This document shows, piece by piece, positions 2,037 through 17,836 of a DNA stretch of 64,000 nt. The translations under genes and the position numbers were made by a program. Every line of letters begins with the position of its first letter. Positions within the stretch are counted from its first letter, which is position 1. The stretch is from Nocardia ninae NBRC 108245 (GTDB lineage Bacteria; Actinomycetota; Actinomycetes; Mycobacteriales; Mycobacteriaceae). The stretch spans positions 1-64,000 of the forward strand of contig NZ_BJXA01000012.1 in NCBI RefSeq assembly GCF_007990755.1, given 5' to 3'. Under the pieces are notes generated by a model that was given only the letters and a program-made list of their open reading frames with translations, was not told the origin of the DNA and ran no database searches.

Positions 2037-2050
2037 TAGACACCTGTGAC

Positions 2051-2081
2051 GAAGGCCCCGGTCCACTGGACCGGGGCCTTC
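2051..2081 (+). terminator. Terminator hairpin after rpsA
   Basis: A perfect 14-bp stem (2051-2064 with 2068-2081) and a 3-nt loop lie 15 bp after the rpsA stop. There is no long T tract, as is common for actinobacterial terminators. Confidence 0.8.
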
Positions 2082-2127
2082 GCCCATGTCGGGGCCGTGG
2101 CGGCCCATCCGCCCGGTATTCTGAACG

Positions 2128-2763
2128 ATGATGTCCGATGCCGCTGTTGAGCTCCCGTCCACTGCCTGGGAGCGCAGGAAGATCGAGGCGATGAGCCGGA
2201 TCCAGCGGGTCGCGCTGGATCTGTTCGACGAGCACGGGTATCGCAATGTCACCATCGAACGGGTCGCCGCTGCGGCCGGGGTCTCGCCGAGCTCGGTGTA
2301 CCGCTACTTCGGCACCAAAGAGATGCTCGTGCTGCACGACGAGGCGGACCCGAAGGTGCTGGAGGCGATCCGCACCGCCGGCGGCGGCACCACCGTCGAA
2401 CCCGCCGGCCTGATCGCCGTCGCGCGGATGCTCGTCCCGTTGTTGATCGAATCGCTGCTGACCGAGGAGTCGGAGCGGCGTATCCGCCAGCGGCTGCAAT
2501 ACACGGCGGCGATCCCCGAGATCAAGGTCGGCCAGACCAAGCAGATGCGCGAGCTGGAGGACCAGTTCCGGACCCTGTTCGCCGAACGAACCGGTTTCGC
2601 GCCCAACGACTTACGGGTACGGATGGCCGCGGCCACCGCGGTCTGGGGTTGTGTCGCCGCGTTGGACCATTGGGCCGGAACGGGTTTCGCGGGGCGGCTG
2701 AAGGACGTCTACACCGAGGCCATCGGATCGATCATCGATCAGATCGAGACCATGTTCCGCTAG
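2128..2763 (+). CDS. TetR/AcrR family transcriptional regulator
   Basis: A 211-aa TetR-type repressor. The N-terminal helix-turn-helix covers about residues 18-65, with the family signature VTIERVAAAAGVSPSSVYRY followed by FGTKEMLV. The C-terminal ligand domain is not assignable to a ligand. Two adjacent ATG codons (2128 and 2131) can start it. Its stop touches the stop of the convergent MMPL exporter with no gap, and a strong palindrome sits in the exporter's promoter about 2.2 kb away. By family analogy this protein is the likely repressor of that exporter (inference). Confidence 0.88.
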   Translation: MMSDAAVELPSTAWERRKIEAMSRIQRVALDLFDEHGYRNVTIERVAAAAGVSPSSVYRYFGTKEMLVLHDEADPKVLEAIRTAGGGTTVEPAGLIAVARMLVPLLIESLLTEESERRIRQRLQYTAAIPEIKVGQTKQMRELEDQFRTLFAERTGFAPNDLRVRMAAATAVWGCVAALDHWAGTGFAGRLKDVYTEAIGSIIDQIETMFR

Positions 2764-4965
2764 TCACGTCTTCCGCTTCGGCAGCCACCAGTTCCAGCGC
2801 CCGAACAGCCGCATGAACGCGGGCACCAGCACCAGCCGCACGAGCACCGCGTCGATCGCGATGGCGACCGCAAGCGCGAACCCGATCTGCTTGAGCTCCA
2901 ATACATTCGCGGTCACGAAGCTGGCGAAGACGGCGACCATGATCGCGGCGGCCGCGGTGATCGGCCTGGCCGTGCGTTGCAGCCCATCGGCGACCGCCGC
3001 GGCGTTGTCGTGGTGGACATCCCAGTGTTCCTTCATCCGGCGGATGAGGAATACCTCGTAATCCATTGACAGGCCGAACAACACCGCGAACACCAGCATC
3101 GGCAGATAGATCTGGAGGAACCCGGTGCTGTGGAAGCCGAGCGCGGACTCGCCGATGCCGTGCTGGAAGACCGCGACCGTAATGCCCAGTGCCGCACCGG
3201 TGGCCAGCAGATTCAACACGATCGCCTTCACCGCCAGCACGATGCTGCGGAACGCGGCGACGAGGAAGGCGAAGGAGACGGCCAGCACCAGCGCGATCAC
3301 CCAGGGAAATCGACCGGTGATCCGTTCGGACACATCGACGAACAGCGCGGTGGTGCCGCCGATGCGCACCTCGGCATCACCGAGAGACGCTGCGCGGGAA
3401 CGCATATCGGTGACCAGGTCGGACGCGGCGGTGGACCCGAACGCGGCGCGCGGGACGACGGCCGCGAACATCCGGCCGTCCGCGTACTGCGGCAGCACGG
3501 TGGCGATGCGGGGGTCATGGGAGAGTTCATTGATGAACCGGTCGGCTTGCTCGCGTGCCGCACTGGTCAGCGGTGCTGCGTCCGCGCCCGTCGCGACCAC
3601 CTCGATGGGGGCGAGCAGCCCAGGGGTGAAGTTCTTTTCGACCAGGGCGATCGCCTGCCCGGCGGGGCGATCGGTGAGGGCGTCGGTGCCCACGTCGACG
3701 CCGTAGCGCAGGCCGGTGAGCGGCGCCGCCGCCACGACCAAGAGCGCGACGCCGACCGTGCCGAACAGCACCGGCCGTGCCATCACGGTGTGCGCCCACC
3801 GCGCCCATGCGCTCGACGCCGCCGCGGATCGCACCTCGGCGGGACGCATCCGCTCGGGCAGCGCTCCGCGATTCACCGCCGGGCCCAACGTCGCGAGCAG
3901 TGCGGGCAGCAGCGTGAACGCGGCAGTCATGGTGGCGATTACCGCGGTGACCACGCCGACGGCGATGCCGTTCAGCATCGGCAGTCCGACGACGGCCAGC
4001 GAACACAGCGAGATCATCACGATGAGTCCGGAGGCGAGCACCGTCCGGCCGGTGGTGTCCATCGCCGCGCCGACGGCCTCGTGAATGGCGTTGCGGTCGC
4101 GGCGGTTTCGGACGCCACGGCGGGTCAGCTCCTCGTTGAAGCGGCTGACGATGAACATCGCGTAGTCGATCGCGGTGCCGGTGGCGATCATCGTCGCCAC
4201 CGAGAGCACCAGGGAGTCGAAGGCGAGGAAGGTCGTCAGGCCGAAGAGCGCGCCGACGGCTACCGCGATGCCTGCCGCGGTCACCGTGATCGGTAGCAGA
4301 GCCGCGGTCAATGCCCCGAGTGCCAGCACCAGCAGCACCGTCGCCACGGGGATGCCGAGGGTTTCCGCGCGTTGCAGGTCGGCCGTCTCGATCTGCATCA
4401 TCTCGGACTGGATCGGCGCGTACCCGGTGAGCATGACCTGGGTGCCTGCACCAGGTCCGGTCTCGATGGCCGCCCGCAAATCCTGCACGACCCGCACTCG
4501 GGCCGAGATGTCACCGTCGACGCCGATGATGCCGAAGGCGGTGTGCCGGTCGGCGGATATTTGGGCGGCATTGCCGTCGAACGGGCCGATGGCCCCGGCC
4601 ACGCCCGAGGTCTGCCTGGCGACACTGATCGCCCGATCGATCGTCGCGCGGTATGCCGGTGTGTCGACGGTGCCCTCGGCGGAGTGGAAGACGATCAGGT
4701 CCTGCTCGATGCCGAACCGGGAGAAGTGTTCCGCGACAAGATGATCGACCGCGACCGAGTCGGAGCCCGGCACCGAATAGTCGGGGGTGCCGAGCCGGGC
4801 GTGCAGCGCGGGATACGCCGCGCCGCACACCACGACCAACAGCAGCCAGACGCCGAGCACGACCTTGCGATGCCTGGCCATCGCGACTCCCCACCGCCCG
4901 GCCGCACCCCACCGCTGAGTCGGAGCGGGCGGTTCCGGCCGATCGAGGATGGTGGGTTGTGCCAT
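2764..4965 (-). CDS. MMPL (RND-superfamily) membrane transporter
   Basis: A 733-aa integral membrane exporter of the MmpL/YdfJ type, driven by proton motive force. It has an N-terminal membrane helix (about residues 33-54), a large external loop, then two sets of about five helices separated by a second external loop. The motifs AIDYAMFIVSRF and GLSMDYEVFLIRRM are the paired conserved strings of this family. Its length is that of the short MMPL class rather than lipid-exporting MmpL proteins of about 950 aa. The substrate is unknown. The start ATG lies about 20 bp from a 31-bp palindrome, so repression by a TetR protein is likely; the convergent TetR gene at 2128 is the obvious candidate. Confidence 0.9.
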   Translation of the reverse strand: MAQPTILDRPEPPAPTQRWGAAGRWGVAMARHRKVVLGVWLLLVVVCGAAYPALHARLGTPDYSVPGSDSVAVDHLVAEHFSRFGIEQDLIVFHSAEGTVDTPAYRATIDRAISVARQTSGVAGAIGPFDGNAAQISADRHTAFGIIGVDGDISARVRVVQDLRAAIETGPGAGTQVMLTGYAPIQSEMMQIETADLQRAETLGIPVATVLLVLALGALTAALLPITVTAAGIAVAVGALFGLTTFLAFDSLVLSVATMIATGTAIDYAMFIVSRFNEELTRRGVRNRRDRNAIHEAVGAAMDTTGRTVLASGLIVMISLCSLAVVGLPMLNGIAVGVVTAVIATMTAAFTLLPALLATLGPAVNRGALPERMRPAEVRSAAASSAWARWAHTVMARPVLFGTVGVALLVVAAAPLTGLRYGVDVGTDALTDRPAGQAIALVEKNFTPGLLAPIEVVATGADAAPLTSAAREQADRFINELSHDPRIATVLPQYADGRMFAAVVPRAAFGSTAASDLVTDMRSRAASLGDAEVRIGGTTALFVDVSERITGRFPWVIALVLAVSFAFLVAAFRSIVLAVKAIVLNLLATGAALGITVAVFQHGIGESALGFHSTGFLQIYLPMLVFAVLFGLSMDYEVFLIRRMKEHWDVHHDNAAAVADGLQRTARPITAAAAIMVAVFASFVTANVLELKQIGFALAVAIAIDAVLVRLVLVPAFMRLFGRWNWWLPKRKT

Positions 4966-4986
4966 CGCCCCTCCAGGGATCGCTAT

Positions 4987-5017
4987 CTGACAGTCACTAT
5001 CAGGTACTGCCTGTCAG
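4987..5017. promoter_or_regulatory. 31-bp palindromic operator candidate ahead of the MMPL gene
   Basis: CTGACAG (4987-4993) is matched by CTGTCAG (5011-5017), and 11 of 14 arm positions pair around centre 5002. Its size and position, just upstream of the MMPL start, fit a TetR-family operator. The regulator assignment is inference. Confidence 0.55.
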
Positions 5018-5090
5018 CATAGGAACAGCGAGGGAAAATTAGCAAGGGACTGTCATGAGAGGAGTCGGTCCGGCAAGGTCCTCGTCTCAC

Positions 5091-5135
5091 ATGCGGTGCG
5101 GCGGCCCGGGTGTGTCGGGGACCGCCGCACCGCAT
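5091..5135 (-). terminator. Terminator hairpin
   Basis: A perfect 14-bp inverted repeat (5091-5104 with 5122-5135) with a 17-nt loop. It lies about 80 bp past the stop of the minus-strand gene ending at 5217 and separates it from the MMPL promoter. Confidence 0.65.
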
Positions 5136-5216
5136 CGGCATGGCGGCGGCAGGCCGGGGTACGCCGGGGTGATGCCGCCGATCGGTCGACTAGCGGGCAG
5201 GCGCCACGCGTCGAAG

Positions 5217-5792
5217 TCAGTTGTCGGCGCGGCGCTTCCGCTCACCTTGATGGGTGACACCGGTTCGCCGCGAGGGCTTCGTGGTCCCACGCTGCACCTG
5301 CGGCGTGGTGGTCGGCGCCCGCAGCGGGCCGACCGCCTGGGCGGTGGTGAGGGCGACGACCTGGATCTGCTCCAATCGCAGGCCGAGTCCGGCGAGCCGG
5401 GCGATCACGCCGAGGCGATGTTCCGGCAGGCCCGGTCGAATCGGCAGGGGGTCCTGGCCGGGCCTGCGCAGCACGTAGGTCCTGTGTTCGGCGTCGAAGT
5501 CGATCGGCGCGCCATCGCGCACAGCGCGATAGGCGTCGAGGTCCAGGTCGTTGTGCCGGACCGGATCGATCATCAAGGCGTCGATCAACCGCTCGGCGTG
5601 CGCGAGGCGCATGTCCCGATCCGGCGGATCCAGGTGTTCCACCTGCCGCGCGACCCGCCACCGATAGCCATCGGCGGCGGCGCGCAACAGGTACCGATGC
5701 CGTTCGATCTCAGCCGCCAGCTCGACCAGCCGCTCGACATCGACAAACATCGGTTCACGCGGGTCGGGCATCGAAGCTGGAACGTCAGGCAT
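5217..5792 (-). CDS. Hypothetical protein
   Basis: A 191-aa soluble protein that I do not recognise. The start ATG at 5792 is fixed by a perfect AGGAGG seven bases upstream; the reading frame stays open far upstream, but that part overlaps the next gene antisense and is not coding. The protein is rich in Arg, Leu and Asp, with helical segments such as LVELAAEIERHRYLLRAAA, a central acidic part, and a basic tail ending KRRADN. No membrane segment, signal peptide or known motif is visible. It is not obviously linked in function to the MMPL gene or the NAD(P)-binding protein on either side. Confidence 0.6.
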   Translation of the reverse strand: MPDVPASMPDPREPMFVDVERLVELAAEIERHRYLLRAAADGYRWRVARQVEHLDPPDRDMRLAHAERLIDALMIDPVRHNDLDLDAYRAVRDGAPIDFDAEHRTYVLRRPGQDPLPIRPGLPEHRLGVIARLAGLGLRLEQIQVVALTTAQAVGPLRAPTTTPQVQRGTTKPSRRTGVTHQGERKRRADN

Positions 5793-5809
5793 TGCGCCTC
5801 CTCGGTCGA

Positions 5810-5831
5810 GTTGCCAATTACGTTGGGCAAC
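5810..5831. promoter_or_regulatory. Inverted repeat upstream of the hypothetical gene
   Basis: GTTGCC (5810-5815) and GGCAAC (5826-5831) form a 6-bp inverted repeat with a 10-bp spacer, 18 bp ahead of the start at 5792. It may be a protein-binding site; evidence is only its symmetry and position. Confidence 0.25.
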
Positions 5832-5917
5832 AACTCGATCGACGTCCGACCTGGTTTCTATTGTGGCAGAGGGGTACGACAGGTTTCGGCTAGCCGTGCC
5901 GCGGGCGGTCGGCTGCT

Positions 5918-6604
5918 TCAGTAACCGACGGTGAAGCGGCGCTGGAGGTAGCGCGGCTGTTCGACTTCGTCCAACAGGGCGACGGCGAGATCCTCGGCGG
6001 AAAGATCGGGCGCCCCGTCCGCGGCGATGAGCAACTGGTCGCCGCCGACGCGGAAGCGACCCGTTCGAGTGCCGGGGTTGATCCGGCCAGCCGAAGGGCT
6101 GAGATAGGTCCAGTTGCGATTGGACAATCGGTAGACGTTCAACGCGTCCCGCAACGCCCGCACCACCTCGGCGTACTCGGCGGGCACGCCGAGATCCTCG
6201 GTGAGGGTGCGCACGAAGTCCGCGCCGGTGTCGACCAGTTGCAGGCCGGGTGCGATCTCCAGGCTGCCCGCGCCGCCGACGGCGATCACCCGGACCCGCG
6301 GCTGCCGTTCGAGCGCCCGAACCATCGCCTGCGCTCCGACCACGAAATCGCCTGCGCGCGCGATGGTATCGGCGATGCCGTGCCCGGCGTTGACCGCGCT
6401 GATCACCACGTCGAGGCCGGAGATGGCGGCCGCCACGCTGTCGGCGTCGAGCCAGTCGGCGACCTGCCAGGTCACGGTGCCGCGCTCGGTGGGGAAGCGA
6501 CCGGCATCCCGGCTGAACGCGGTCACCCGATGCCCGCGCCGCGTTGCCTCGTCGACGGCGCGGCTGCCGATGACGCCCGTCGCGCCGAAAATCCCGATGT
6601 CCAC
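5918..6604 (-). CDS. NAD(P)H-binding protein, NmrA/atypical SDR type
   Basis: A 228-aa Rossmann-fold protein. The dinucleotide-binding loop GIFGATGVIGSRAV sits at residues 4-17, and AVGGAGSLE near the middle is typical of the NAD(P)H-binding (NmrA-like, YwnB-like) branch of atypical short-chain dehydrogenases. The classical YxxxK catalytic pair is not evident, so it may sense nucleotides or reduce small substrates. It is divergent from a TetR regulator that starts about 90 bp away, with repeated sequence blocks between them, so control by that regulator is likely (inference). Confidence 0.82.
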   Translation of the reverse strand: MDIGIFGATGVIGSRAVDEATRRGHRVTAFSRDAGRFPTERGTVTWQVADWLDADSVAAAISGLDVVISAVNAGHGIADTIARAGDFVVGAQAMVRALERQPRVRVIAVGGAGSLEIAPGLQLVDTGADFVRTLTEDLGVPAEYAEVVRALRDALNVYRLSNRNWTYLSPSAGRINPGTRTGRFRVGGDQLLIAADGAPDLSAEDLAVALLDEVEQPRYLQRRFTVGY

Positions 6605-6617
6605 GATCCACTCCCTA

Positions 6618-6683
6618 AACGCTGTCCAGTTACTACACGCCGTTCAGTAACGACACGGGTGATAGTAGCCAAACGCTGTAGAG
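6618..6683. promoter_or_regulatory. Divergent promoter region with repeated operator-like blocks
   Basis: Three similar blocks occur between two divergent genes: CGCTGTCCAGTTAC (from 6620), CGCCGTTCAGTAAC (from 6638) and CGCTGTAGAGTGTC (from 6674). The first two also contain an inverted repeat, GTTACT (6629-6634) with AGTAAC (6646-6651). They are likely sites for the adjacent TetR protein; this is inference from symmetry and position. Confidence 0.4.
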
Positions 6684-6691
6684 TGTCAACC

Positions 6692-7393
6692 GTGGTGGAG
6701 GCCGTGAAGAGTCGCAGAGAGCGCATGCGTGAGCAGGCGTCCGGGGAGATCAAGGCCATTGCTCTGCGGTTATTGGCCGAGGGCGGCCCCGATGCGGTCT
6801 CGTTGCGCGCCATCGCCCGCGAGATGGGCATGACGGCCGGCGCCATCTACGGCTACTACGCCACCCGCGACGACCTGATCTCCACCCTGATCTCCGACGT
6901 GTACACCGCCCTGGTCGACCGGGTCGAGGCCGCGCGCGACGCGGTCCCCGTCGACGACCCCGCCGGGCGCATCGTGGCGTGGGGTGAGGCCGTGCGCGAC
7001 TGGGCAATCGAGCATCCCGCCGAGTTCCGGCTCATCTACGGCGACCCGGTGCCCGGCTACCAGCCGCCGCCGGGTGGCCCCGCCGCCACCGCCGCATTGC
7101 GGGCGTGCACCGGCCTCGTCGGTCTGACCGCCGCCGCGTGGCCCAGCGCGGCGAAGCACCAAAACCTCGGCGACACAACATGGTCCGACTTCGACGCGGG
7201 TCTCGTCGCCCACGTCCGCGCCGACTTCCCCGAGTTGCCGCCTGCCGCACTCGGTCTCGCGCTACGCATGTGGGGCCGTATGCACGGGCTGATCGCGTTG
7301 GAGGTCTACGGGCACCTGGTTCCCCAATCACTGGACCCCGCAAAGCTTTTCCACCTCGAGATGCTCGATCTGGTCCGCTCGCTCGGCCTGTAG
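6692..7393 (+). CDS. TetR/AcrR family transcriptional regulator
   Basis: A TetR-type repressor of about 233 aa. The helix-turn-helix AVSLRAIAREMGMTAGAIYG followed by YYATRDDLI lies at about residues 34-65. The C-terminal domain has the WGEAVRDWAIEHPAEFRLIY pattern seen in the WHG-type TetR ligand domain. The start is uncertain: GTG codons at 6692, 6695 and 6704 and an ATG at 6725 are all in frame before the DNA-binding domain, and none has an ideal ribosome site. It is divergent from the NAD(P)-binding gene and probably controls it and itself. Confidence 0.85.
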   Translation: MVEAVKSRRERMREQASGEIKAIALRLLAEGGPDAVSLRAIAREMGMTAGAIYGYYATRDDLISTLISDVYTALVDRVEAARDAVPVDDPAGRIVAWGEAVRDWAIEHPAEFRLIYGDPVPGYQPPPGGPAATAALRACTGLVGLTAAAWPSAAKHQNLGDTTWSDFDAGLVAHVRADFPELPPAALGLALRMWGRMHGLIALEVYGHLVPQSLDPAKLFHLEMLDLVRSLGL

Positions 7394-7486
7394 CCGGTAT
7401 ATGGGCTGCTGAGGGGAACGGTCGTCGTGAAGACCTCGTGGTAATTGTTTTCTGGATGGTTGCTCGCTGCGCGCGGACCGGGTCCG

Positions 7487-8620
7487 TCAGACCCCGAGGT
7501 AGCCGAGGGTCGCGGCGAACATGATGCCGGTGAACAGTGGCCAGAACAGGATCTTCGGGAGCAGGTTGTCGCGCCAGGCGAGGGCTTTGCTGAAGGCGCC
7601 GTGCAGCAACATGGTGGCGTTGAGTGCGACGAGCAGGGTCATCACATAGAGGGTGAAATACCAGTACTCGATGTAGGAGATGCCCGCGGAGCCGATTTCG
7701 GTGCGGGCGGCGTTGTCGTTGACCGCCACGACGAGCACGGTGGACACCGAGAAGGTGATGATTGCGAAGGCGGTGAAACCCGAAATGGGTCGGCGGTCGG
7801 GGTCGGTGGTGATCACGAACAGCGACAGGAACATCAGGACGGCGAGCAGTAGCACCGGCACGATCCGGCCGAGCATCGGTCCGAGCAGGCCCCGGCTGAC
7901 GCCGACGTTGAAATACAGCTCGTCGGTATTGGACAGCCCGGGATGGGACAGCATGCTGTATTCCTGACGGTTCAGGCTCCACACCGTGTAGTCCGGTGTC
8001 CAGTCGCCGAATACGAGGTCGGGGTCCAAGCCGTTGAGGGCCTTGCCATCCCACGGCGGGAACGATTCGAACGAGGGCACCAGCTGGACCGGATGGATCA
8101 TGTCGACTGGGCGCATCCGCAGCCAGATGTCCTGGTGATCTAGCGGATAGTCCTCATAGTTGAATTGCTGCCGGATGACCGTAGAGAACGACCAGACGAT
8201 CACGCGGTTCTCCCCGAGCGGATACTCGAACACCTTTTTGGGGCAGTGCGGGTCCTCGGCCTCGAGTAGCAGGACGCCTGACTCGATGTCGTCCGGAAAT
8301 CCTGGCGGGATGTGCTGCCAGATATGTCCGGTGGCTTTCACGTTGTGGGCATTGATGAATTGCAGCGCGTTCAACAGCACGCCGGTGGATACCCGGGGCA
8401 CGACGCGATCCTGGGGGAGATGTGGCGTCACCGCGGCTTCCGCCTCGGCGTAGCTCGACACCGTGACGCCCTTCTCCGCGACCGGCGCGTGCCTGCTTCC
8501 GGCGTGGGTCCAGGAGTACACGGTGCCTGCGGCCAGTGTCAGGGACACGACGGCGGAGGCGAGCCACAACCACAGCTTCGCCTTCGGCGCGCAGCGCGAG
8601 ACCACCTCCCTGATCGACAC
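7487..8620 (-). CDS. Membrane protein resembling a pentameric ligand-gated ion channel subunit
   Basis: A 377-aa protein with an N-terminal membrane segment (about residues 16-38), an external domain of about 210 residues, then four hydrophobic helices (about 255-277, 285-305, 320-343, 357-377). The external domain contains NYEDYPLDHQDIWLRM, like the FPFDxQ Cys-loop region of Cys-loop receptors, and ends with a short strand and an Arg just before a first helix that carries a proline (GRIVPVLLL). A PDRRPISG turn precedes the second helix and ISYIEYWYF starts the third, again as in that superfamily. No Cys pair is needed in bacterial members. The alternative is a DUF4436-like membrane protein. 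It stands alone, and its ligand and ion are unknown. Confidence 0.55.
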   Translation of the reverse strand: MSIREVVSRCAPKAKLWLWLASAVVSLTLAAGTVYSWTHAGSRHAPVAEKGVTVSSYAEAEAAVTPHLPQDRVVPRVSTGVLLNALQFINAHNVKATGHIWQHIPPGFPDDIESGVLLLEAEDPHCPKKVFEYPLGENRVIVWSFSTVIRQQFNYEDYPLDHQDIWLRMRPVDMIHPVQLVPSFESFPPWDGKALNGLDPDLVFGDWTPDYTVWSLNRQEYSMLSHPGLSNTDELYFNVGVSRGLLGPMLGRIVPVLLLAVLMFLSLFVITTDPDRRPISGFTAFAIITFSVSTVLVVAVNDNAARTEIGSAGISYIEYWYFTLYVMTLLVALNATMLLHGAFSKALAWRDNLLPKILFWPLFTGIMFAATLGYLGV

Positions 8621-8721
8621 AGCCAGGAGGTTAGCTCGAGGTTAGCCATCGGAGCGGGATCCGCCGGAACGGCGGGGATGTCGCGCCCGACTCGGTGCAT
8701 GTGTCTGAATTCACTTATAAT

Positions 8722-8740
8722 GCTAATGAAAATCATTACC
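8722..8740. promoter_or_regulatory. Fur/Zur-type metal box ahead of the metallophore-like operon
   Basis: The 19 bases at 8722-8740 match the classical Fur consensus (GATAATGATAATCATTATC) at 16 positions. The core TAATGA-AAA-TCATTA (8724-8738) is a perfect 6-3-6 inverted repeat and contains TGAAAATCAT, the half-site style of actinobacterial Zur boxes. It lies about 150 bp upstream of the first gene of the 8891-13732 operon. It does not match the IdeR/DtxR consensus. Confidence 0.65.
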
Positions 8741-8890
8741 GATAGTCTACGATGCTGACATGGCTTTTTCTCGGATCGGGATGTGTGCTGCCCCAACGGC
8801 ATTCGTGGCGAGCGCGCCGGCCCGTAGCCCGGTGGACGGGGTGCCGCCGTCCGGGCGGCTGCTCGATTCGCCCAACGACATCGGAGTTCT

Positions 8891-9868
8891 ATGAGCAACG
8901 CACTGCACATCCTCACGCGCACCGATCTGGCCGATATCGACATCCCGCCTGCCGAGGTCATCGACCTGGTCGAGGACGGCTACCTGGCGTACGCGCAGGG
9001 CGATTCCCGCTGCCCGGTGAAGCTGATGATGCCGATCCCGAAGACCGAACGCGACGCGGTGTCGTATTCCATGCTCGGCTACGACGGTTCGCTCGAGCAG
9101 CTCGGTTTCAAGACCTCCTACCGGCAGGGCAGCGAGAGCGCGGACAAGTACTACACGACGATCAGCCTCTACGACGACACCACCGGCCTCCCGTTCGCGT
9201 TCATGGACTGCCAGCGCGTCGGTGCCTCCCGCACGCCGGCCACCACCGCGATCATCGCGAAACACTGTGCCCGCGAGGGCGCTACGAGCGCGCTGATGAT
9301 CGGCACCGGTATCCAAGGCCGTAACACGTTGCCGTACTTGCTGACCGCCCAGCCGAACCTGGAGCGGCTGCGGTTGTTCGGTACCCATCCGGACGGTATC
9401 GCGGAAAGCATTGCGGCACTGCGCCGCTGGTTCCCAGACCGGGACATCGAACTGGTCGACGATGTGCCCGCGGCAGTCGCCGAGTCCGACATCGTCGTGG
9501 TGGCCTCCGGCCGGGCGGCGCATCCGAAGGTGCGCACCGAATGGCTGCCGCCGGGTGGGCTGCTGATCTCGGTAGCCAGCAAGGGTGTCGAGAGTGGCGC
9601 CTTACGCGCGGCCGACTACGCGATCGCCACCAGCACAGGGCAACTGGGCGTCACCGGTACCCGGCTTGCGGGACCGGAGGGGCAGCCGGTGATCGATGCC
9701 GAACTGCCCGACATCGTGGCGGGGCGGGTGCCGGGACGGTCCGGCGCCGACGATCGGGTGTTCGCGTTCGCCAGCGGCATGATCATCACCGACATCCCGG
9801 TAGCGCACGCACTGGCGACGCGCGCGGTGGCGGCCGGACGTGGACAGCGGGTGGAACTGTGGTCCTGA
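8891..9868 (+). CDS. SbnB-like dehydrogenase of the ornithine cyclodeaminase/mu-crystallin family
   Basis: A 325-aa NAD-dependent enzyme. The N-terminal half carries the substrate part, and the Rossmann loop GTGIQGRN begins at residue 138. In staphyloferrin B synthesis, SbnB oxidatively splits N-(1-amino-1-carboxy-2-ethyl)-glutamate to give L-2,3-diaminopropionate; relatives can act in the reverse, opine-forming sense. GGAG five bases before the ATG supports this start. It overlaps the decarboxylase gene by 10 bp and is the first gene of a four-gene operon behind a Fur/Zur-type box. I infer a role in building an amino-acid-derived metal chelator. The family call is strong; the exact substrate is not known. 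Confidence 0.85.
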   Translation: MSNALHILTRTDLADIDIPPAEVIDLVEDGYLAYAQGDSRCPVKLMMPIPKTERDAVSYSMLGYDGSLEQLGFKTSYRQGSESADKYYTTISLYDDTTGLPFAFMDCQRVGASRTPATTAIIAKHCAREGATSALMIGTGIQGRNTLPYLLTAQPNLERLRLFGTHPDGIAESIAALRRWFPDRDIELVDDVPAAVAESDIVVVASGRAAHPKVRTEWLPPGGLLISVASKGVESGALRAADYAIATSTGQLGVTGTRLAGPEGQPVIDAELPDIVAGRVPGRSGADDRVFAFASGMIITDIPVAHALATRAVAAGRGQRVELWS

Positions 9869-11208
9869 ACGCCGCACTCCTCGATCTGCCCGCACTGCCT
9901 GCGCTGGAACAGGAATGGCAGCACCGGGTGCGCACGGACCCGCAGCTGCTCTTCGACATCCACCACGCCGTCGGTGGCCCGTTCCACGTCGTCTATCCGG
10001 AGCAGTTCGCGCGAAATCTGCGCTCCTTCCAGAAAACCCTCGCCGGACACGGTGTGCGCGGCCAGGTCTACTACGGCAAGAAGGCGAACAAGGCGGGCTG
10101 CTGGCTGCCCACCATCGCCGATCTCGACGGTGCCGTCGATGTCGCCAGCGAGCCCGAACTGGTGCACGCGCTGGCGCACGGCATCCGCGGCCGCGACATC
10201 GGGGTGACCGGGGCGGCCAAAACCGATGCGCTGCTGCGGCTGGCCGCCAGGCACGACTGCGTGGTCGCCATCGATGCCCTCGACGAGCTGGCCCGGGTGG
10301 CGGAGATCGCGCGGACTGCGGGTCCGGTGCGGATCCTGTTGCGGCGGTTGCCGCCGAACGCCCCGCACAGTCGATTCGGTTTGTCGGCAACAGATCTCGA
10401 GACCGCGATCACGCTGTGTGCGCAATGGCGGCCGCAGCTCGAGTTGATCGGGTTCTCGTTCCACCTCGATGGTTACGCCGTCGCACCGCGGGCCGAATTG
10501 GCCTACGACTTGATCCAGCTGTGCGCCAAGACGAAAGCGCAAGGCTTGCCGATCACCGCCCTCTCTATCGGCGGCGGCTTTGCCTGCCGCTATGTCGGAG
10601 ACGACGATTGGCAGGCTTTCCTGGCCCATCGGCGCGACGACTGGTTCCACGCGGGCAAGCGATTCGAGAAGTTCTATCCGTACGCGCAGGAGCCGACCGG
10701 CGCCGACATGCTGGACGCCATCCTTACTATGGGCTTCGACGGTCGCACACTGGCAAGTCACTTGCGCGACAACGACATCCAGCTGTTCATCGAACCCGGC
10801 CGGGCGCTGCTCATCGATGCGGGCTTCACCGTGTTCCCCGTCCTCGGCTTCAAACAGAACGCCGACTACGGCATCACCACCGTGCACGGGCTCAGCATGA
10901 GCGTGTCCGAGCAGTGGAAAGGCAGCGAGTTCCTGCTGGATCCGATCCTGGTGCCCCGGCGCACGGACCCGGCCGCGCAACCGATCGCCAGCTGCGTCGG
11001 CGGCGCGAGCTGCATGGAGTACGACGTCCTCACCTGGCGCAAAGTGCCGCTGCCGCAACGGCCCGCACACGGTGACCTGCTGCTGTATCCGAATACGGCG
11101 GGCTACCAGATGGACAAGAACGAGAGCGAATTCCACCAGCTCCCGTTGCCGCCGAAGGTAGTCGTCACACATCAGGAAGGCCGGTTCCTGTGGCGCTTGG
11201 ACAGGTAG
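9859..11208 (+). CDS. PLP-dependent decarboxylase, fold type III (SbnH / Y4yA-like)
   Basis: A 449-aa enzyme of the alanine racemase/ornithine-diaminopimelate decarboxylase fold. YYGKKANK at residues 71-78 holds the PLP-binding lysine (probably K75), SIGGGFACRY is the phosphate-binding glycine loop, FIEPGRALL follows, and CVGGASCMEYD provides the Cys and Asp of the second active-site motif. In staphyloferrin B synthesis SbnH decarboxylates a diaminopropionate-containing intermediate, and a similar step would turn the diaminopropionate carboxylate into an ethylenediamine unit. The GTG start at 9859 overlaps the upstream stop, so translation is probably coupled. The frame is open earlier, but only as a shadow of the SbnB-like gene. 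Confidence 0.85.
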   Translation: MVLNAALLDLPALPALEQEWQHRVRTDPQLLFDIHHAVGGPFHVVYPEQFARNLRSFQKTLAGHGVRGQVYYGKKANKAGCWLPTIADLDGAVDVASEPELVHALAHGIRGRDIGVTGAAKTDALLRLAARHDCVVAIDALDELARVAEIARTAGPVRILLRRLPPNAPHSRFGLSATDLETAITLCAQWRPQLELIGFSFHLDGYAVAPRAELAYDLIQLCAKTKAQGLPITALSIGGGFACRYVGDDDWQAFLAHRRDDWFHAGKRFEKFYPYAQEPTGADMLDAILTMGFDGRTLASHLRDNDIQLFIEPGRALLIDAGFTVFPVLGFKQNADYGITTVHGLSMSVSEQWKGSEFLLDPILVPRRTDPAAQPIASCVGGASCMEYDVLTWRKVPLPQRPAHGDLLLYPNTAGYQMDKNESEFHQLPLPPKVVVTHQEGRFLWRLDR

Positions 11209-12323
11209 ACACGCAGGAATACGTGAACGCGCACCCGCGAGCGGCTGCGCGCGACGCGGTGGCGCATCTCCCACGGCGTCGGGAGAACGTCGTCCGCTCG
11301 GCCTCCGAGCTCATCGGCTCCACCCCGCTGCTCGAACTCATCCGCACCGGCACCGGTACCCGCCTGCTGCTGAAGCTGGAGCAGTTCAACCCGACCGGCT
11401 CCGCGAAGGTACGCATGGCGCGGGAGATGGTGCTGCAGGCCGAACGCAGCGGCGAATTACGCCCAGGCGGGCACATCGTCGAACCGACCTCCGGCAACAC
11501 CGGCACCGGACTCGCGCTCATGGCACTGGAACGCGGCTACACCTTCACCGCCGTGGTCGACGGCCACGCCGCCGTGGACAAGCTGCGCGCGATGAAAGCG
11601 ATGGGCGCGCAGCTGGTTTCGGTGGACAGCGGCACCGGCGGCGGCCCGAGCACCGTCGAGCGCAGGCGGATCGCCGCGGAGATCGCCGCCCGCACCGGCG
11701 CGTACCGCCCCGACCAGCACAACAATCCACACAACAACGCGGGCTACCGCGAACTCGCCCACGAACTGCTCGCCGATATCGACACCGACGTCGACTATCT
11801 GATCGGCGCCGTCGGGACCGGCGGATCCCTCTGCGGCACGGTCGAAGAACTCCGCAGGCTCGGCTCGCGGGTCCATGCCCTCGGTGTCGAACCGATGGGC
11901 TCCATCATCTTCGGCGGTGCGGCCGGCGGCTACTGGCAGACCGGCGCGGGCAGCCCCGCCGGATTCCCGGTGGGCGGCAACGTCAAATACGACGCCATCG
12001 ACGAGGACTGCCGAGTCGGCGACATCGATGCGTTCGCCACCGCCCGGGTGGTCGCGCGGCGCACCGGCATCCTCGTCGGCGGAACCGGCGGCGCCGCAAT
12101 CCATGTGGCGTTGCGCCGTCTCGTGCATGTGCCCGCGGGCAGCACGGTCATCGTGCTGGTGTGTGACGCGGGGGAAAAGTACCTCGACACCGTGTACGAC
12201 GACGACTGGCTGCGCGAACGCGGCCTGCTGGACCGGGCGGCGCAACAGCGCATCATCAGGCTCTGCCGGGCGTACGACGAATCGGTGCGGCTGGCGGCAT
12301 ACAGCGTTCGGACGGGAGCTTAG
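11190..12323 (+). CDS. SbnA-like PLP-dependent cysteine synthase-family enzyme
   Basis: A 377-aa fold type II PLP enzyme. NPTGSAKVR at residues 67-75 carries the PLP lysine (K73), PTSGNTGTGLA binds the substrate carboxylate, and GTGGSLCGT binds the PLP phosphate. GSIIFGG and CDAGEKYLDTVYDDDWL resemble staphylococcal SbnA, which joins O-phosphoserine to the amino group of glutamate. About 40 residues extend beyond SbnA at the C-terminus. AGGAAGG nine bases ahead supports the GTG at 11190, which overlaps the decarboxylase end by 19 bp; a GTG at 11223 is the alternative. Together with the SbnB-like and SbnH-like genes it implies synthesis of a diaminopropionate- or ethylenediamine-based product. 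The amino-acid partner (Glu or Asp) is not predictable by eye. Confidence 0.82.
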   Translation: MALGQVDTQEYVNAHPRAAARDAVAHLPRRRENVVRSASELIGSTPLLELIRTGTGTRLLLKLEQFNPTGSAKVRMAREMVLQAERSGELRPGGHIVEPTSGNTGTGLALMALERGYTFTAVVDGHAAVDKLRAMKAMGAQLVSVDSGTGGGPSTVERRRIAAEIAARTGAYRPDQHNNPHNNAGYRELAHELLADIDTDVDYLIGAVGTGGSLCGTVEELRRLGSRVHALGVEPMGSIIFGGAAGGYWQTGAGSPAGFPVGGNVKYDAIDEDCRVGDIDAFATARVVARRTGILVGGTGGAAIHVALRRLVHVPAGSTVIVLVCDAGEKYLDTVYDDDWLRERGLLDRAAQQRIIRLCRAYDESVRLAAYSVRTGA

Positions 12324-12328
12324 GCCAC

Positions 12329-13732
12329 ATGGCGTTTCGAGAGTATCGAGCCATCGTCGCGCTGGCCGCGCCGATCGCGGGTATCCAGCTGGCCCAGGTG
12401 GCGCTGACCACGGTCGATCTGGCGATGATGGGGCTGCTCGGCGTCGCCGCCGTCGCCGCTGGCGGGCTCGCGCTGCTGCTGTACAACCAGCTGCGCACCA
12501 TGTGCGTCGGCATGATCACCGGCGTCGGGAACATGATCGCCGAGGTCGTCGGCGGTAGCGAAAAACGCACCGGGCGAGGTGATCTCGACGAGCAAGCGCG
12601 CGCCGAGATCCGTGGGTTCGTGCGCGCGGCGGCCTTCGTGGCGACGGTGACGTCGACGGCGGGCGCGCTGCTGCTGATCGCGCTGGGCTACGCGTTGCGC
12701 TGGCTCGGCCAGGCCCCGGACGTGCTCGAGCTGGCCCGCCCCATCATGTGGACGCTCGCGCCCGGCCTGATACCCATGCTCTGGCTGAACGTGTTGCGGC
12801 AGTTCGCCGTCGGCATGCGCCGGGCGGGCTCACTGTTGCGGGTGACGCTGCTGTCGATCGGCGTCAACGCACTGCTCAACGCGCTGTTCATCTACGGCTG
12901 GTTCGGCGTGCCGAAACTCGGCCTTGCCGGAATCGGCCTGTCCACCACGCTCGTTCAGCTCTGGACGTTCGGCATCTACCTGCGTACCGTCCGGCGCGAC
13001 CCGCTGCTCGGCGACCTGCTGTCCCTGCGCGCGTGGCAGGCGGACCGGGCCACCGTGACGCGCATCGTCCGGATGGGTACGCCGATCTCGTTGACCTACG
13101 GCGCGGAAGCGGCGATCACCTCCATCGCCGCAGTGCTGATGGGCAGCTTCGGACCGGTGGCGCTGGCCGCGAGCAACATCGTCAACCAGCTGGCCTACAT
13201 CGTCTACCAGGTCAATATCGGTCTGTCCCAGGGCTCTTCGATCCTGGTGAGCCGCACGGTCGGGCAAGGCGACCGGCATGCGGTGGCGGCCATCGCGCGG
13301 CGCACTGTGCTGCTGGGCTTCGCCTTCATGACCCTCGTCGGCCTCGGCTACGTGCTGTTCCCCGGCGCCGTTCTCGCGCCGTTCCTCGGCTCGCACCACG
13401 ACGACACCGCCGTCATCGCCGCCGCTTCGACGCTGCTGTGGTTCGCGATCATCCAGCAGTACTGCAAGGGCTCGCAGAACCTGTCCATCGGCCTGCTGCG
13501 CGGCATCGGAAACACCAAGGCGGGGATGCAGAGCACGCTGATCGGCTACTTCGCCATCGGGGTACCCGCCATGGCCGTCTTCGGGTTCGGGCTCGGCTGG
13601 GACGGACCCGGCATCTGGCTCGGGCTCTGCCTCGGCTTCGGCGCCACCGCCGCGCTGGTGTGGCGGAAATTTCTGCGCGGTGCCGCCGACATGGCCACGC
13701 CCACGCGGGAATCCGTGCCCGCGAACCGGTGA
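12329..13732 (+). CDS. MATE-family efflux transporter
   Basis: A 467-aa polytopic membrane protein with about twelve helices in two similar halves, as in NorM/MatE multidrug and metabolite exporters (for example IVALAAPIAGIQLAQVALTT near the N-terminus and IVRMGTPISLTYGAEAAITS at the start of the second half). These carriers use sodium or proton gradients. It starts 5 bp after the SbnA-like gene and is the last gene of the operon, so it probably exports the product made by the three enzymes. No matching uptake system (ABC or TonB-like) is in the window. Confidence 0.88.
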   Translation: MAFREYRAIVALAAPIAGIQLAQVALTTVDLAMMGLLGVAAVAAGGLALLLYNQLRTMCVGMITGVGNMIAEVVGGSEKRTGRGDLDEQARAEIRGFVRAAAFVATVTSTAGALLLIALGYALRWLGQAPDVLELARPIMWTLAPGLIPMLWLNVLRQFAVGMRRAGSLLRVTLLSIGVNALLNALFIYGWFGVPKLGLAGIGLSTTLVQLWTFGIYLRTVRRDPLLGDLLSLRAWQADRATVTRIVRMGTPISLTYGAEAAITSIAAVLMGSFGPVALAASNIVNQLAYIVYQVNIGLSQGSSILVSRTVGQGDRHAVAAIARRTVLLGFAFMTLVGLGYVLFPGAVLAPFLGSHHDDTAVIAAASTLLWFAIIQQYCKGSQNLSIGLLRGIGNTKAGMQSTLIGYFAIGVPAMAVFGFGLGWDGPGIWLGLCLGFGATAALVWRKFLRGAADMATPTRESVPANR

Positions 13733-14593: not shown

Positions 14594-14921
14594 TGATGTT
14601 CCTTTGCTTGCTGGTGCTGGCGCCCTGGATCGCCACGGCGAAGATTAGCCGAACGAAAGTGCCGTGCAGAGTATTTTGCGCAAGTAATTGGGTCGGCGTG
14701 TCGGAAAGTTGTCGCCCGAGTACCGGGTCCGGCCGGAATTGTTGCGAAATGGTCTCGGCCTCGTCACGGATCGGGCAATTACGGCGGCGGCAGGTGGAAA
14801 GCGCGGGCCGGATGGGTAATCCGGCTGATTGTGTCGCCGAAGTCGAACGTCGGTCCTTGCGGCACTGCCCGGCGGTGTGGGCGCGCAGGCCGCCCCGGCC
14901 CCGGGATGCGAGACTGGTCCG
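14594..14921. other. Intergenic region before coaE
   Basis: About 330 bp with less G+C than its surroundings and no convincing coding frame on either strand. It probably carries the coaE promoter; I see no clear operator. Confidence 0.4.
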
Positions 14922-16124
14922 ATGTTGCGGATCGGCCTCACCGGAGGCATGGGAGCGGGCAAGTCGACGGTGGCGCGAATTCTCGCCGATCTCGGCGCGG
15001 TGATCATCGATTCCGACCTGATTGCCAGGGAGGTCGTCGCGCCGGGTACCGAGGGCCTGGCGGCGCTCGTGGCCGCGTTCGGCGCCGAGATCCTGGCGGC
15101 CGACGGCAGCCTGGACCGGCCCGCCCTGGCGGCCAAGGCTTTCGCGGACGACGAATCGCGCGCGACGCTGAATTCGATTACGCATCCGCTGGTGGGCAAA
15201 CGTACCGCCGAACTCATTTCCGCGGCCGCGCCCGACGCCATTGTTGTGCAGGATATTCCGCTGCTGGTCGAAAATGGTCTCGCACCATTGATGAACTTGG
15301 TTGTTGTCGTCGATGTCGACGCGGAAACTCGGCTGCGCAGGCTGGTCGAATTCCGCGGCATCGCCGAAGCCGATGCGCGGGCGCGTATTGCCGCGCAGGC
15401 CACCGACGAACAGCGCCGCGCGGTCGCCGACGTGTTGCTCGACAACAGTGGCGCGCCCGCGGCGATCGAGGACGAGGTGCGGCGGCTGTGGCAGGACCGG
15501 CTGGTGCCGTTCGAGCGCAACCTCCGTGCCGGGACGCCCGCGCGCAAGAAAGACATCCGGCTGGTGCCGGCGAACCCGGACTGGGCCGTACAGGCGCAGC
15601 GGCTCATCGCCAGGCTGTGGGTGGCGTGCGGGGCGGCTGCATCGCGCATCGATCACATCGGCTCGACCGCCGTGCCGGAGCTGCCCGCCAAGGACGTGCT
15701 CGATCTACAGATCACCGTGGCGGACCTCGCGGCGGCCGACGGCCTGCGGGATGCGTTGGGGGCGGCGGGATTTCCGGTTCGACCGGAGATCACGGAAGAC
15801 TGCCCGAGGCCGACGGCGCAGGATCCGGCGGGCACGGACGTCACGTTGTGGACCAAGCGCTACCACCAGAACGCCGACCCCGGCCGCCTCGCCAATGTGC
15901 ATGTGCGCGTGGCCGGTACGCCCGGGCAGGAGTACGCGCTGCTGTTCCGTGACTGGCTGCGCGCCGACGCCGACGCACGCGCCGAGTACCTCGAGGTCAA
16001 GCGCGCGGCGAAGGCGAAGGCGACCGGCCTGACCGGCGAGGCGGCGACGATCGCCTACCTCGACGTCAAAGAGCCCTGGTTCGCCGCCGCCTACCCCCGC
16101 ATGCAGGCTTGGCGGGATCGCTAG
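14922..16124 (+). CDS. coaE: Dephospho-CoA kinase fused to a GrpB (UPF0157) domain
   Basis: A 400-aa two-domain protein. Residues 1-200 are dephospho-CoA kinase, which phosphorylates the 3-hydroxyl of dephospho-CoA in the last step of CoA synthesis; the P-loop GGMGAGKS is at residues 8-15, followed by the [17 protein letters not shown] substrate motif. From about residue 207 a GrpB/UPF0157 nucleotidyltransferase-like domain follows ([20 protein letters not shown], then [12 protein letters not shown]). This fusion is usual in mycobacteria and relatives; the role of the GrpB part is unclear, possibly folding or regulation. The ATG at 14922 directly precedes the LRIGLTGG strand; an earlier ATG at 14829 would add 31 unlikely residues. 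Confidence 0.95.
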
Positions 16125-16142: not shown

Positions 16143-16667
16143 CTAGAGCCAGGTGAGGGTGACGCCGCGGGATTGCAGCCAGCGGTCCAGGCTGTAGTCG
16201 TGCGCGGCGATGCCGTCGATGGCGGTGGTCGCGGTCTCGATGGCGGCCTGGGCCTCGGCGGCGGTGAGTAGCCCGGCCGTGTGCGCGGCGAGCAGTTCGT
16301 CGACGTCGAGGAGTTCGGTGTCGCGGCCCGTGCGTACGACGATGTCGAGGTAGTGGTCCACCGACTTCCAGCGGTCCGGCTCCAGCTGGCGGAACTCGCC
16401 GAGGTCCAGGTAGAAGTCCTGGTCGCGCTGGTGCTCAGGGTTGTAGTGGAAGACGCTGGCCCGCAGCGCCAGGTCGGGCAGCAGCCACGATTCGATGTAG
16501 TGGAACTGCTCGTGGTCCGAGGTGCGTGCCATGTACAGGCCCCACGGCTCCACCTGGTACCGCTCGACCGGCCGCACGAATCCCTTGGGATCGGTGTTGG
16601 TCAGCGCCGCGAGGTCGAAGTACTCGACCTTGGGCCGATGTACGTCGACGGAAGGTGCCTGGGTCAT
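16143..16667 (-). CDS. DUF402 domain protein
   Basis: A 174-aa protein of the DUF402 (FomD-like) family, small beta-barrel proteins some of which are nucleoside phosphate hydrolases. Typical strings are KGFVRPVERYQVEPWGLYMA, the DHYLDIVV strand with its paired Asp residues (a candidate metal site), and LLDVDELLAAHTAGLL. The ATG at 16667 gives an N-terminus just ahead of the domain. It is convergent with coaE (18 bp apart) and 47 bp downstream of a paralogue in the same direction, with which it probably arose by tandem duplication. The substrate is unknown. Confidence 0.8.
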   Translation of the reverse strand: MTQAPSVDVHRPKVEYFDLAALTNTDPKGFVRPVERYQVEPWGLYMARTSDHEQFHYIESWLLPDLALRASVFHYNPEHQRDQDFYLDLGEFRQLEPDRWKSVDHYLDIVVRTGRDTELLDVDELLAAHTAGLLTAAEAQAAIETATTAIDGIAAHDYSLDRWLQSRGVTLTWL

Positions 16668-16714
16668 GCATTCAGAATCTACCGCCGCCCCGCCGGAGTC
16701 GAGTGACCCGGCGG

Positions 16715-17362
16715 TTACATCCAGGTGAGGGAAATGCCGTGGGTGGCCAGCCAGTCCTCGACGCAGTGGTCGTTGGCGGCGAGGCCGTCCAGCGCCGCCG
16801 TCGCGCACTCGAAGGCCCGGTGCGCCTGTGCGGTGTCCACCAATCCGGCCGCGTGGGCGGCCAGCAGCTCGTCGACGCCGAGCAGTTCGACATTGTGGCC
16901 GCGGTGCACCTCGATGTCGAGGTAGTGGTCGACGGCCTTCCAGTGCTTCGGCTCGATCTCGGTGAACTCACCGATATCCAGGTGGAAATCGTGATCCACG
17001 TGATGCGCCGGGTTGCGGCGGGTCAGCGTCACGCGCAGCGAGAGCGCGGGCAGCAGCCAGCACTCCAGGTAGTGGCGGTGCGGGACGGGCACGATGCGGG
17101 CCATGTACACGCCCCACGGTTCGTGGTGGTAGCGCTCGACCTGACGGACGAAGCCCTTGCAGTCGGTGCTGGTGAGTTCCGCGAGGTTGAAGAACTCGAC
17201 GCGCGGCCGGTGCGGTGGGTGCCCGGGCGGTAACACGGTGTTCGTTGCGGCGGCATTGGCGTTCTGATTCAGTCCGGGGACCGCTGCGCGGAGGTGCCGG
17301 GCGATAGTTCCTGCGAAGCCGGTGGTCGGCACGGTATTGAGCAATGGAATCAGACCTCTCAT
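16715..17362 (-). CDS. DUF402 domain protein (paralogue)
   Basis: A 215-aa second DUF402 protein. It shares with its downstream neighbour the order GFVRQVERYHHEPWGVYMA, DHYLDIEV, LLGVDELLAAHAAGL and a final ISLTWM. It has about 55 extra N-terminal residues before the domain begins at HRPRVEFFNLAEL; these depend on taking the ATG at 17362, and a shorter start inside that stretch is possible. The two paralogues are co-directional and probably co-transcribed. The domain assignment is good; the N-terminus is uncertain. Confidence 0.75.
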   Translation of the reverse strand: MRGLIPLLNTVPTTGFAGTIARHLRAAVPGLNQNANAAATNTVLPPGHPPHRPRVEFFNLAELTSTDCKGFVRQVERYHHEPWGVYMARIVPVPHRHYLECWLLPALSLRVTLTRRNPAHHVDHDFHLDIGEFTEIEPKHWKAVDHYLDIEVHRGHNVELLGVDELLAAHAAGLVDTAQAHRAFECATAALDGLAANDHCVEDWLATHGISLTWM

Positions 17363-17836
17363 GGCTCTTGTTCTTCGCCACATCCGAACGCGTTGTCCGA
17401 ACAACCAAATCAGCGTACACCTGGGGAATGGTGGGTGGGCGCAATGACGCGATATGTTTTTGGCTACGAATTGTGTTGCAGCAAGGGACAATTCGGACAC
17501 ATAACGGTGGCTGAAAGTGAAACGGCATTGGTGCGCCCGCGTTGTCTCGCTATGTGCGGCGGAACTGTGAACAATGGCGGCCGCGCGCATGCGGCCAGCG
17601 CCCGGGCTGCCAGGAATGGATTGCTGGGAATGCGCGAGCACCGACCGTCGTTCAATAACTCGGGACTCGGCGCGAGGACGCTACGGCGACACTGACCGAA
17701 CCCGCTAACCAAGGGACTGTCGCGAAGTCCCATCCGGCGCCTCCGGGGGGCTGGATTTGCGACAGGCCGAGGTCCGCGGCAGCCACCGCCCGCGCGACCG
17801 CGAAATCTGTCGGTGGCTGGGCTTAGGCTGGTGAAC
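17363..17836. other. Intergenic region between DUF402 and uvrB
   Basis: 474 bp without a convincing gene. Open frames here have poor codon use and no ribosome site. The first 300 bp are less G+C-rich and probably hold two divergent promoters. A hairpin repeat related to the one at 34767-34928 lies at 17717-17765. Confidence 0.5.
17717..17765. repeat. Hairpin repeat related to the 34767-34928 element
   Basis: CTGTCGC (17717-17723) pairs with GCGACAG (17759-17765), and the stem continues inwards with one bulge. The inner part GAAGTCCCATCCGG plus CGCCTCCGG (17724-17746) is nearly identical to the left arm of the larger palindrome at 34767-34928. It looks like a shorter or decayed member of one dispersed repeat family. 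Confidence 0.6.

What the first reader, a model, noticed from the sequence alone, without database searches (positions are those of the whole stretch)
8722..13732. Small metal-regulated operon for a diaminopropionate/ethylenediamine-type metallophore without any NRPS or NIS synthetase
Seen: a Fur/Zur-type box (16 of 19 consensus positions) followed by overlapping or tightly packed genes for an SbnB-like dehydrogenase, an SbnH/Y4yA-like PLP decarboxylase, an SbnA-like PLP synthase and a MATE exporter. Known: SbnA, SbnB and SbnH build the diamine parts of staphyloferrin B. As I recall, a four-gene set of this kind under Zur control makes the zincophore ethylenediamine-disuccinate in Amycolatopsis japonicum. 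Inference: SbnA-like coupling of phosphoserine to an amino acid, decarboxylation of the diaminopropionate carboxylate, and a reverse (opine-forming) SbnB-like step would suffice to make an aminocarboxylate chelator that MATE exports. The same operon in Nocardia would be a new producer or a new variant.
Basis: partly seen in the sequence, partly recalled or inferred. Interest (0 to 1): 0.87.

Follow-up and report, generated by a model that had tools for sequence, protein, structure and literature searches.

The report
Zinc-chelator operon that lost its importer
This bacterium carries a probably zinc-controlled four-gene set that most likely makes and exports a natural EDTA-like zinc chelator, a known kind of system, but the neighbouring genes that bring such a chelator back in have been deleted, leaving a visible scar.

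Summary
In detail: a 16-of-19 Fur-type box at 8722-8740 (0 in 100 shuffles) precedes four packed genes (SbnB-like, LysA/SbnH-like, SbnA-like, MATE). It is most likely a Zur box: the only other sites within 2 mismatches in this genome lie before mrf with the S14/S18/L33 paralogues and before a ZigA/CobW-like GTPase, and 21 of 24 Nocardia orthologues carry a similar box. The EDDS producer Amycolatopsis japonica has the same four genes behind such a box (57-72% identity). New here: 10 of the 24 Nocardia operons also hold a NikA-like ABC importer between box and genes; 14, the window included, do not, and have no close copy elsewhere. The window keeps the first codons of the lost importer as a scar. 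At least two deletions were probably independent, while synthesis and export genes stay under purifying selection. A. japonica lacks the importer too. A second, EDHA-like paralogue with an IdeR-type box lies elsewhere in the genome.

The parts
8722..8741 (+). Zur-type operator: 19-mer Fur-type match 8722-8740, 15-mer TGAAAATCATTACCG at 8727-8741
   Evidence: 16 of 19, 0 in 100 shuffles; 13 of 15 to a Zur-type consensus (which gives 3 such matches in the window against 0.19 expected); same box before S14/S18/L33-mrf and a ZigA/CobW-like gene; present in orthologues
8760..8894 (+). 44-codon scar ORF: first codons of a lost solute-binding-protein gene, ending like the last codons of the importer's second ATPase; stop overlaps the SbnB-like start
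   Evidence: Start matches the SBP start of importer-bearing relatives (coding part z 23.1; alignment and translations). The ATPase end is suggestive only: it also holds the SbnB-like gene's ribosome-binding site
8891..9868 (+). SbnB-like dehydrogenase (ornithine cyclodeaminase/mu-crystallin family)
   Evidence: matches 4m54, listed as a putative ornithine cyclodeaminase (S. aureus SbnB from memory), E 8e-18
9859..11208 (+). LysA/SbnH-like PLP decarboxylase
   Evidence: lysine 75 and cysteine 385 line up with LysA structures (their catalytic roles recalled)
11190..12323 (+). SbnA-like PLP beta-replacement enzyme (cysteine-synthase fold family)
   Evidence: lysine 73 aligned with the family's PLP lysine (role recalled)
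12329..13732 (+). MATE exporter
   Evidence: (above the TIGR00797 cut-off)

Best explanation
A Zur-repressed operon that makes and exports an ethylenediamine-type aminopolycarboxylate zincophore, most likely EDDS. Inferred chemistry: the SbnA-like enzyme joins an activated serine to aspartate, the LysA/SbnH-like enzyme removes the serine-derived carboxylate, the SbnB-like enzyme adds the second four-carbon arm by reductive amination with oxaloacetate, and MATE exports the chelator. In relatives the same transcript starts with a NikA-like ABC importer, presumably for the zinc complex. In this lineage the importer was deleted from just after the signal-peptide start, which put the four remaining genes directly behind the Zur promoter. 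Shown by sequence: gene set, box, conservation, deletion. Inferred: product, zinc response, transport substrates.
For: Box and its genomic company. Same order and Zur-type box in A. japonica (57-72% identity), identified because 15 kb of its second contig is 100% identical to plasmid NZ_CP008954.1; the operon is that genome's only match to the decarboxylase at E <= 1e-90. EDDS and Zur control: passages of PMC6103462, PMC4993170 and PMC13379591. Zur-type box with at most 2 mismatches in 21 of 24 Nocardia operons. Importer in 10 of 24: PF00496, two BPD_transp_1 and ABC_tran; nearest named family NikA. Scar. No importer elsewhere in 14 of 14 importer-less Nocardia. dN/dS 0.045-0.208 in 28 gene comparisons of 7 importer-less pairs.
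Against: The window's box has 2 mismatches to the Zur-type consensus; 3 of 24 orthologues have weaker sites (3, 3 and 4 mismatches), and L113's listed site may be another palindrome. The Nocardia operons are nearest to a proteobacterial set, with the A. japonica set next. No fixed enzyme difference separates zinc-boxed from iron-boxed clades, and at columns that separate the Amycolatopsis-type from the EDHA-type the window agrees with the former in only 17/22 (SbnB-like), 7/14 (decarboxylase), 15/28 (SbnA-like) and 9/20 (MATE). SbnA and SbnB equivalog cut-offs are not met. Gain of the importer cannot be told from loss by the tree alone, and the ATPase part of the scar is weak. No expression or chemistry data.
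Confidence: 0.75

Rival explanations
1. The operon makes a different ethylenediamine or diaminopropionate chelator (for example a glutamate- or other amino-acid-armed analogue), still under Zur.
For: The Nocardia clade is not the nearest neighbour of the A. japonica clade; enzyme columns agree with the Amycolatopsis type only in part.
Against: Same gene order, same kind of box, 57-72% identity, and an orthologous importer (SBP 68% in an Amycolatopsis).
Confidence: 0.3
2. It is an iron siderophore operon of the EDHA kind, and the box is a Fur or IdeR site.
For: Fur-type consensus match; EDHA-type clusters are iron-linked in print (passages of PMC10702961); close relatives carry IdeR-type boxes.
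Against: No IdeR-type box here (best has 8 mismatches, as good in 38.5% of shuffles); no hydroxylase in the operon; the genome's other copy has both.
Confidence: 0.07
3. The importer was never there; importer-bearing relatives gained it.
For: Parsimony counts changes, not their direction.
Against: SBP start codons persist behind the box in importer-less loci: strong in the window, L041, L107, L042, L111 and L048, weak in L113; the full importer also occurs at operons of Amycolatopsis, Kribbella, Gordonia and Tsukamurella.
Confidence: 0.07

Closest known systems
[S,S]-EDDS (aes) genes of Amycolatopsis japonica (Spohn 2016; paper not seen, cited in passages of PMC6103462, PMC4993170 and PMC13379591)
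   Same: SbnB-, SbnH-, SbnA-like and MATE genes in the same order behind a Zur-type box; no importer beside them or elsewhere at E <= 1e-40
   Different: 57-72% identity; separate clade; product unknown here. That these four are the published aes genes is my inference: they are the only match at E <= 1e-90
EDHA (ethylenediaminesuccinic acid hydroxyarginine) siderophore clusters (Spohn 2018; not seen)
   Same: Same four-gene core
   Different: The EDHA-like loci fetched carry an Arg-beta-hydroxylase-like gene and mostly an IdeR-type box; the window has neither, but its own genome has such a locus at C92 (L031)
Staphyloferrin B (sbn) genes
   Same: SbnA, SbnB and SbnH families
   Different: No IucA/IucC synthetase in the genome; equivalog cut-offs not met
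NikA/CntA-type ABC importers
   Same: The importer lost here is of this superfamily: TIGR02294 nickel_nikA 110 bits, CntA 64.5 bits
   Different: Well below those families' cut-offs; its box in the Nocardia operons is Zur-type

Membership tests
EDDS-type (aes) zincophore operon | SbnB-like, SbnH-like, SbnA-like and MATE genes together, no NIS/NRPS | tested here: met
EDDS-type (aes) zincophore operon | Zur operator in front | tested here: met
   (sequence only; binding not tested)
EDDS-type (aes) zincophore operon | Groups with the A. japonica genes in a tree | tested here: inconclusive
   window-type clade is sister to 10 proteobacterial operons, the Amycolatopsis set next
EDDS-type (aes) zincophore operon | Product is EDDS, repressed by zinc | not testable with these tools
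   needs culture and mass spectrometry
EDHA-type siderophore cluster | Arginine hydroxylase gene and iron (IdeR) box | tested here: not met
   (IdeR best 8 mismatches); no such gene between 8722 and 13732
Staphyloferrin B-type (NIS) siderophore | IucA/IucC-family synthetase | tested here: not met
   0 matches in the genome
SbnA / SbnB equivalogs | NCBIfam cut-off reached | tested here: not met
   220 of 350 bits and 102 of 327 bits

The most novel reading that the evidence does not exclude
Zinc-chelator producers that have repeatedly thrown away their own importer while keeping synthesis, export and zinc control. The secreted chelator would then work without re-uptake of its complex, for example by handing zinc to another transporter at the cell surface or by denying zinc to competitors; production without private uptake would be the reverse of the usual siderophore cheater.
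Probability: 0.25. Interest if true: 0.75.

Novelty: new member of a known kind. Interest (0 to 1): 0.5.

Why it matters
It puts a probable zinc-controlled aminopolycarboxylate operon beside an iron-boxed EDHA-like one in a single genome, names a candidate importer for EDDS-type chelators (none is named in the passages I saw), and shows that this importer is dispensable and repeatedly lost, also absent from the reference producer A. japonica. How Zn-EDDS is used by its makers becomes a testable question.

Tried and rejected
Importer-only 'pirates': 21 further matches (43-47%) to the SBP in Nocardia genomes and matches in 46 of 397 genomes of an order-wide sample. Of 56 SBP loci examined 9 had a Zur-type box with at most 2 mismatches, 8 of them at window-type operons and one (L227) in genome G391, which also has the four genes; the other 47 had none. 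Some of the 47 show by eye TTGCAA-type repeats like a nickel-regulator site (recalled). I take most to be nickel importers and drop the pirate idea; loci not listed were not examined.

Enzyme columns as a pointer to the product: no fixed zinc/iron difference. Functional leader peptide: not favoured, since in relative L042 the junction is out of frame. Dedicated importer elsewhere in G000: best matches only 23-30% identical. Besides the mrf and ZigA-like sites, six other places with 1 mismatch to the Zur-type consensus gave no evident metallophore importer: C71 precedes an ABC ATPase and a DoxX-like gene (by eye), two lie inside called genes, and one (L190) gave no called gene. PADLOC: nothing for the SbnB-like protein. 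Papers: in the open-access library; (at least 3 of the 4 terms Nocardia, zincophore, ethylenediamine disuccinic, Zur) found 0 papers; (producers without receptor) gave 4 listings that I did not open. All papers cited were seen as passages only; Spohn 2016 and 2018 were not seen.
Full report
What is there. The window holds four same-strand genes at 8891-13732 (SbnB-like, LysA/SbnH-like, SbnA-like, MATE) behind a 16-of-19 Fur-type box. The genome has no IucA/IucC domain, and none of its 88 condensation-domain matches lies on contig C12. The operon sits between a 377-aa gene without Pfam match (7487-8620, -) and coaE (14829-16124).

The box. Searched in the whole genome with up to 3 mismatches, the 15-mer TAATGAAAATCATTA gives 17 rows against 5 for the reversed control pattern; only three sites have at most 2 mismatches. 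The two others lie in the divergent region between L33/S14/S18 genes and an mrf-type GTPase (all four above NCBIfam cut-offs), and just before a ZigA/CobW-like GTPase (497 bits, below the 600 cut-off). From established knowledge these are hallmark Zur targets. A Zur-type consensus read off the loci (TGANAATNATTNTCA, at most 1 mismatch) hits 8 places in the genome, each listed on both strands (16 rows), against 2 control rows; the window's own site has 2 mismatches.

Orthologues. In 150 of 150 same-genus genomes the decarboxylase has a match at E <= 1e-20 (list truncated). Twenty-four genomes have one at 72% or more (the window type), 11 matches in 10 genomes lie at 56-61%, and the remainder of the list is at 54% or less. 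All 24 window-type operons hold the four genes. A Zur-type site with at most 2 mismatches stands before the first gene in 20 of 24 within 250 bp (each with 0 of 200 shuffles as good) and in a 21st further up; the last three have 3, 3 and 4 mismatches. Of 15 operons of Amycolatopsis and allies 11 have one. Of 11 'iron-type' loci 7 (5 distinct places, two seen twice) have an IdeR-type box, as do 6 of 7 loci with the hydroxylase.

A. japonica. Genome G449 has contigs of 8,961,318 and 92,539 bases; 15 kb of the second are 100% identical to the A. japonica plasmid NZ_CP008954.1. Its operon (L095) has the same order and a box with 1 mismatch; identities to the window are 72, 57, 67 and 63%. Passages of PMC6103462, PMC4993170 and PMC13379591 say that EDDS synthesis in this species is under Zur and that its genes were found through Zur sites. 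A passage of PMC5120989 gives EDDS a Kd for zinc of 2.3e-11 M.

Tree. In a quick tree of 73 chosen operons (four proteins joined; not all fetched loci were used) the 24 window-type rows are one side of a branch (100*), so are 20 Amycolatopsis-type rows; the window type is sister to 10 proteobacterial operons (99*), then comes the Amycolatopsis type. The product therefore cannot be read from the nearest neighbour. Enzyme columns do not decide either.

The lost importer. In N. colli (L102; the same locus is the named record L137), at the same chromosomal place, five ABC-importer genes stand between box and SbnB-like gene: SBP (PF00496), two permeases, two ATPases (the second recognised by 32% identity to the first). 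Ten of 24 window-type operons have this importer, 14 do not. None of the 14 has an SBP match elsewhere at E <= 1e-40; G000's best are 23-30% identical. Among six Amycolatopsis genomes tested, one has it, one (A. coloradensis, G315) has a fragment, and four, A. japonica included, have no match. The SBP is nearest to NikA among NCBIfam families (TIGR02294, 110 bits against a cut-off of 393). A passage of PMC7312458 notes that E. coli NikA binds Fe-EDTA and may need a natural metallophore, which fits an aminopolycarboxylate cargo.

The scar. The window from 8691 to about 8806 aligns with box, promoter and first codons of the SBP gene (z 75.8 against shuffles; coding part alone z 23.1), then runs as a 44-codon ORF into LDSPNDIGVL-stop, like the end LDSHNDIGV of the second ATPase of L103. 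That end also holds the ribosome-binding site; without the last 25 bp no ATPase similarity remained there (best z 3.5, elsewhere), so the ATPase half is suggestive. SBP starts also persist in L041, L107, L042, L111 and L048 (z 13-34), weakly in L113 (6.2); ATPase ends in L093 (z 40.8) and L097 (12.4); the other 11 of the 20 importer-less loci tested show no clear trace. The junction in L042 differs and is out of frame.

Repeated loss. A careful tree of 29 operons needs 5 changes of importer state among the 24; one scar-bearing operon (L107) pairs with an importer-bearing one (97/95*). Holding the four scar-bearing operons of the window's own group together is rejected (AU p 0.006), with the caveats that I named that group after seeing the first tree and that an operon tree may differ from the species tree. 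In seven importer-less pairs all 28 gene comparisons give dN/dS 0.045-0.208; three importer-bearing pairs give 0.025-0.152 for the same genes. Of 44 operons, stops or short coverage turned up only in two MATE genes. I assume, without proof, that each pair had an importer-less ancestor.

The second copy. G000:C92 (L031) holds a paralogous set (46-57% identity) behind a TauD-family hydroxylase (best solved match L-arginine beta-hydroxylase 4m23, E 2e-47; NCBIfam GntD 232 and VioC 197 bits, both below cut-off) with an IdeR-type box and a divergent family-5 ABC importer. I read it as EDHA-like; the iron-linked N. mangyaensis cluster in PMC10920908 may be its counterpart (not tested).

Verdict. A new member of the EDDS-type zincophore operons. 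The new point is the importer and its repeated loss. Why producers drop it is open: another transporter may take zinc from the chelator, or the chelator may serve to withhold zinc.

Noticed in passing
L031 (G000:C92:8000-27900), 1788-12988: Second, EDHA-like aminopolycarboxylate locus with hydroxylase, IdeR-type box and divergent family-5 ABC importer.
   Followed up: partly
L167, 10001-20347: On a contig labelled Agrobacterium vitis pTi the three enzyme genes occur without a MATE hit, followed by a family-5-type ABC importer (27-31%).
   Followed up: no
L169, 10978-13852: Mycobacterium parascrofulaceum: the decarboxylase match is split into two pieces about 1.5 kb apart, as if interrupted by an insertion.
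   Followed up: no
L101 (G391), 3428-13691: A 2.4-Mb genome of the same family but another genus carries importer and four genes together, with a Zur-type box before the SBP (L227).
   Followed up: partly
L175, 36-14842: Tsukamurella sp. 8F has the importer-bearing operon right beside a divergent match to the EDHA-like importer's binding protein.
   Followed up: no
window 16143-17641 (-): Two adjacent ORFs whose later parts look alike, as if duplicated.
   Followed up: no
L192 and L190 (G000:C34:81980, C22:547): Zur-type sites with 1 mismatch, one upstream of an MFS-like gene (by eye), one on a stretch where no gene was called.
   Followed up: no
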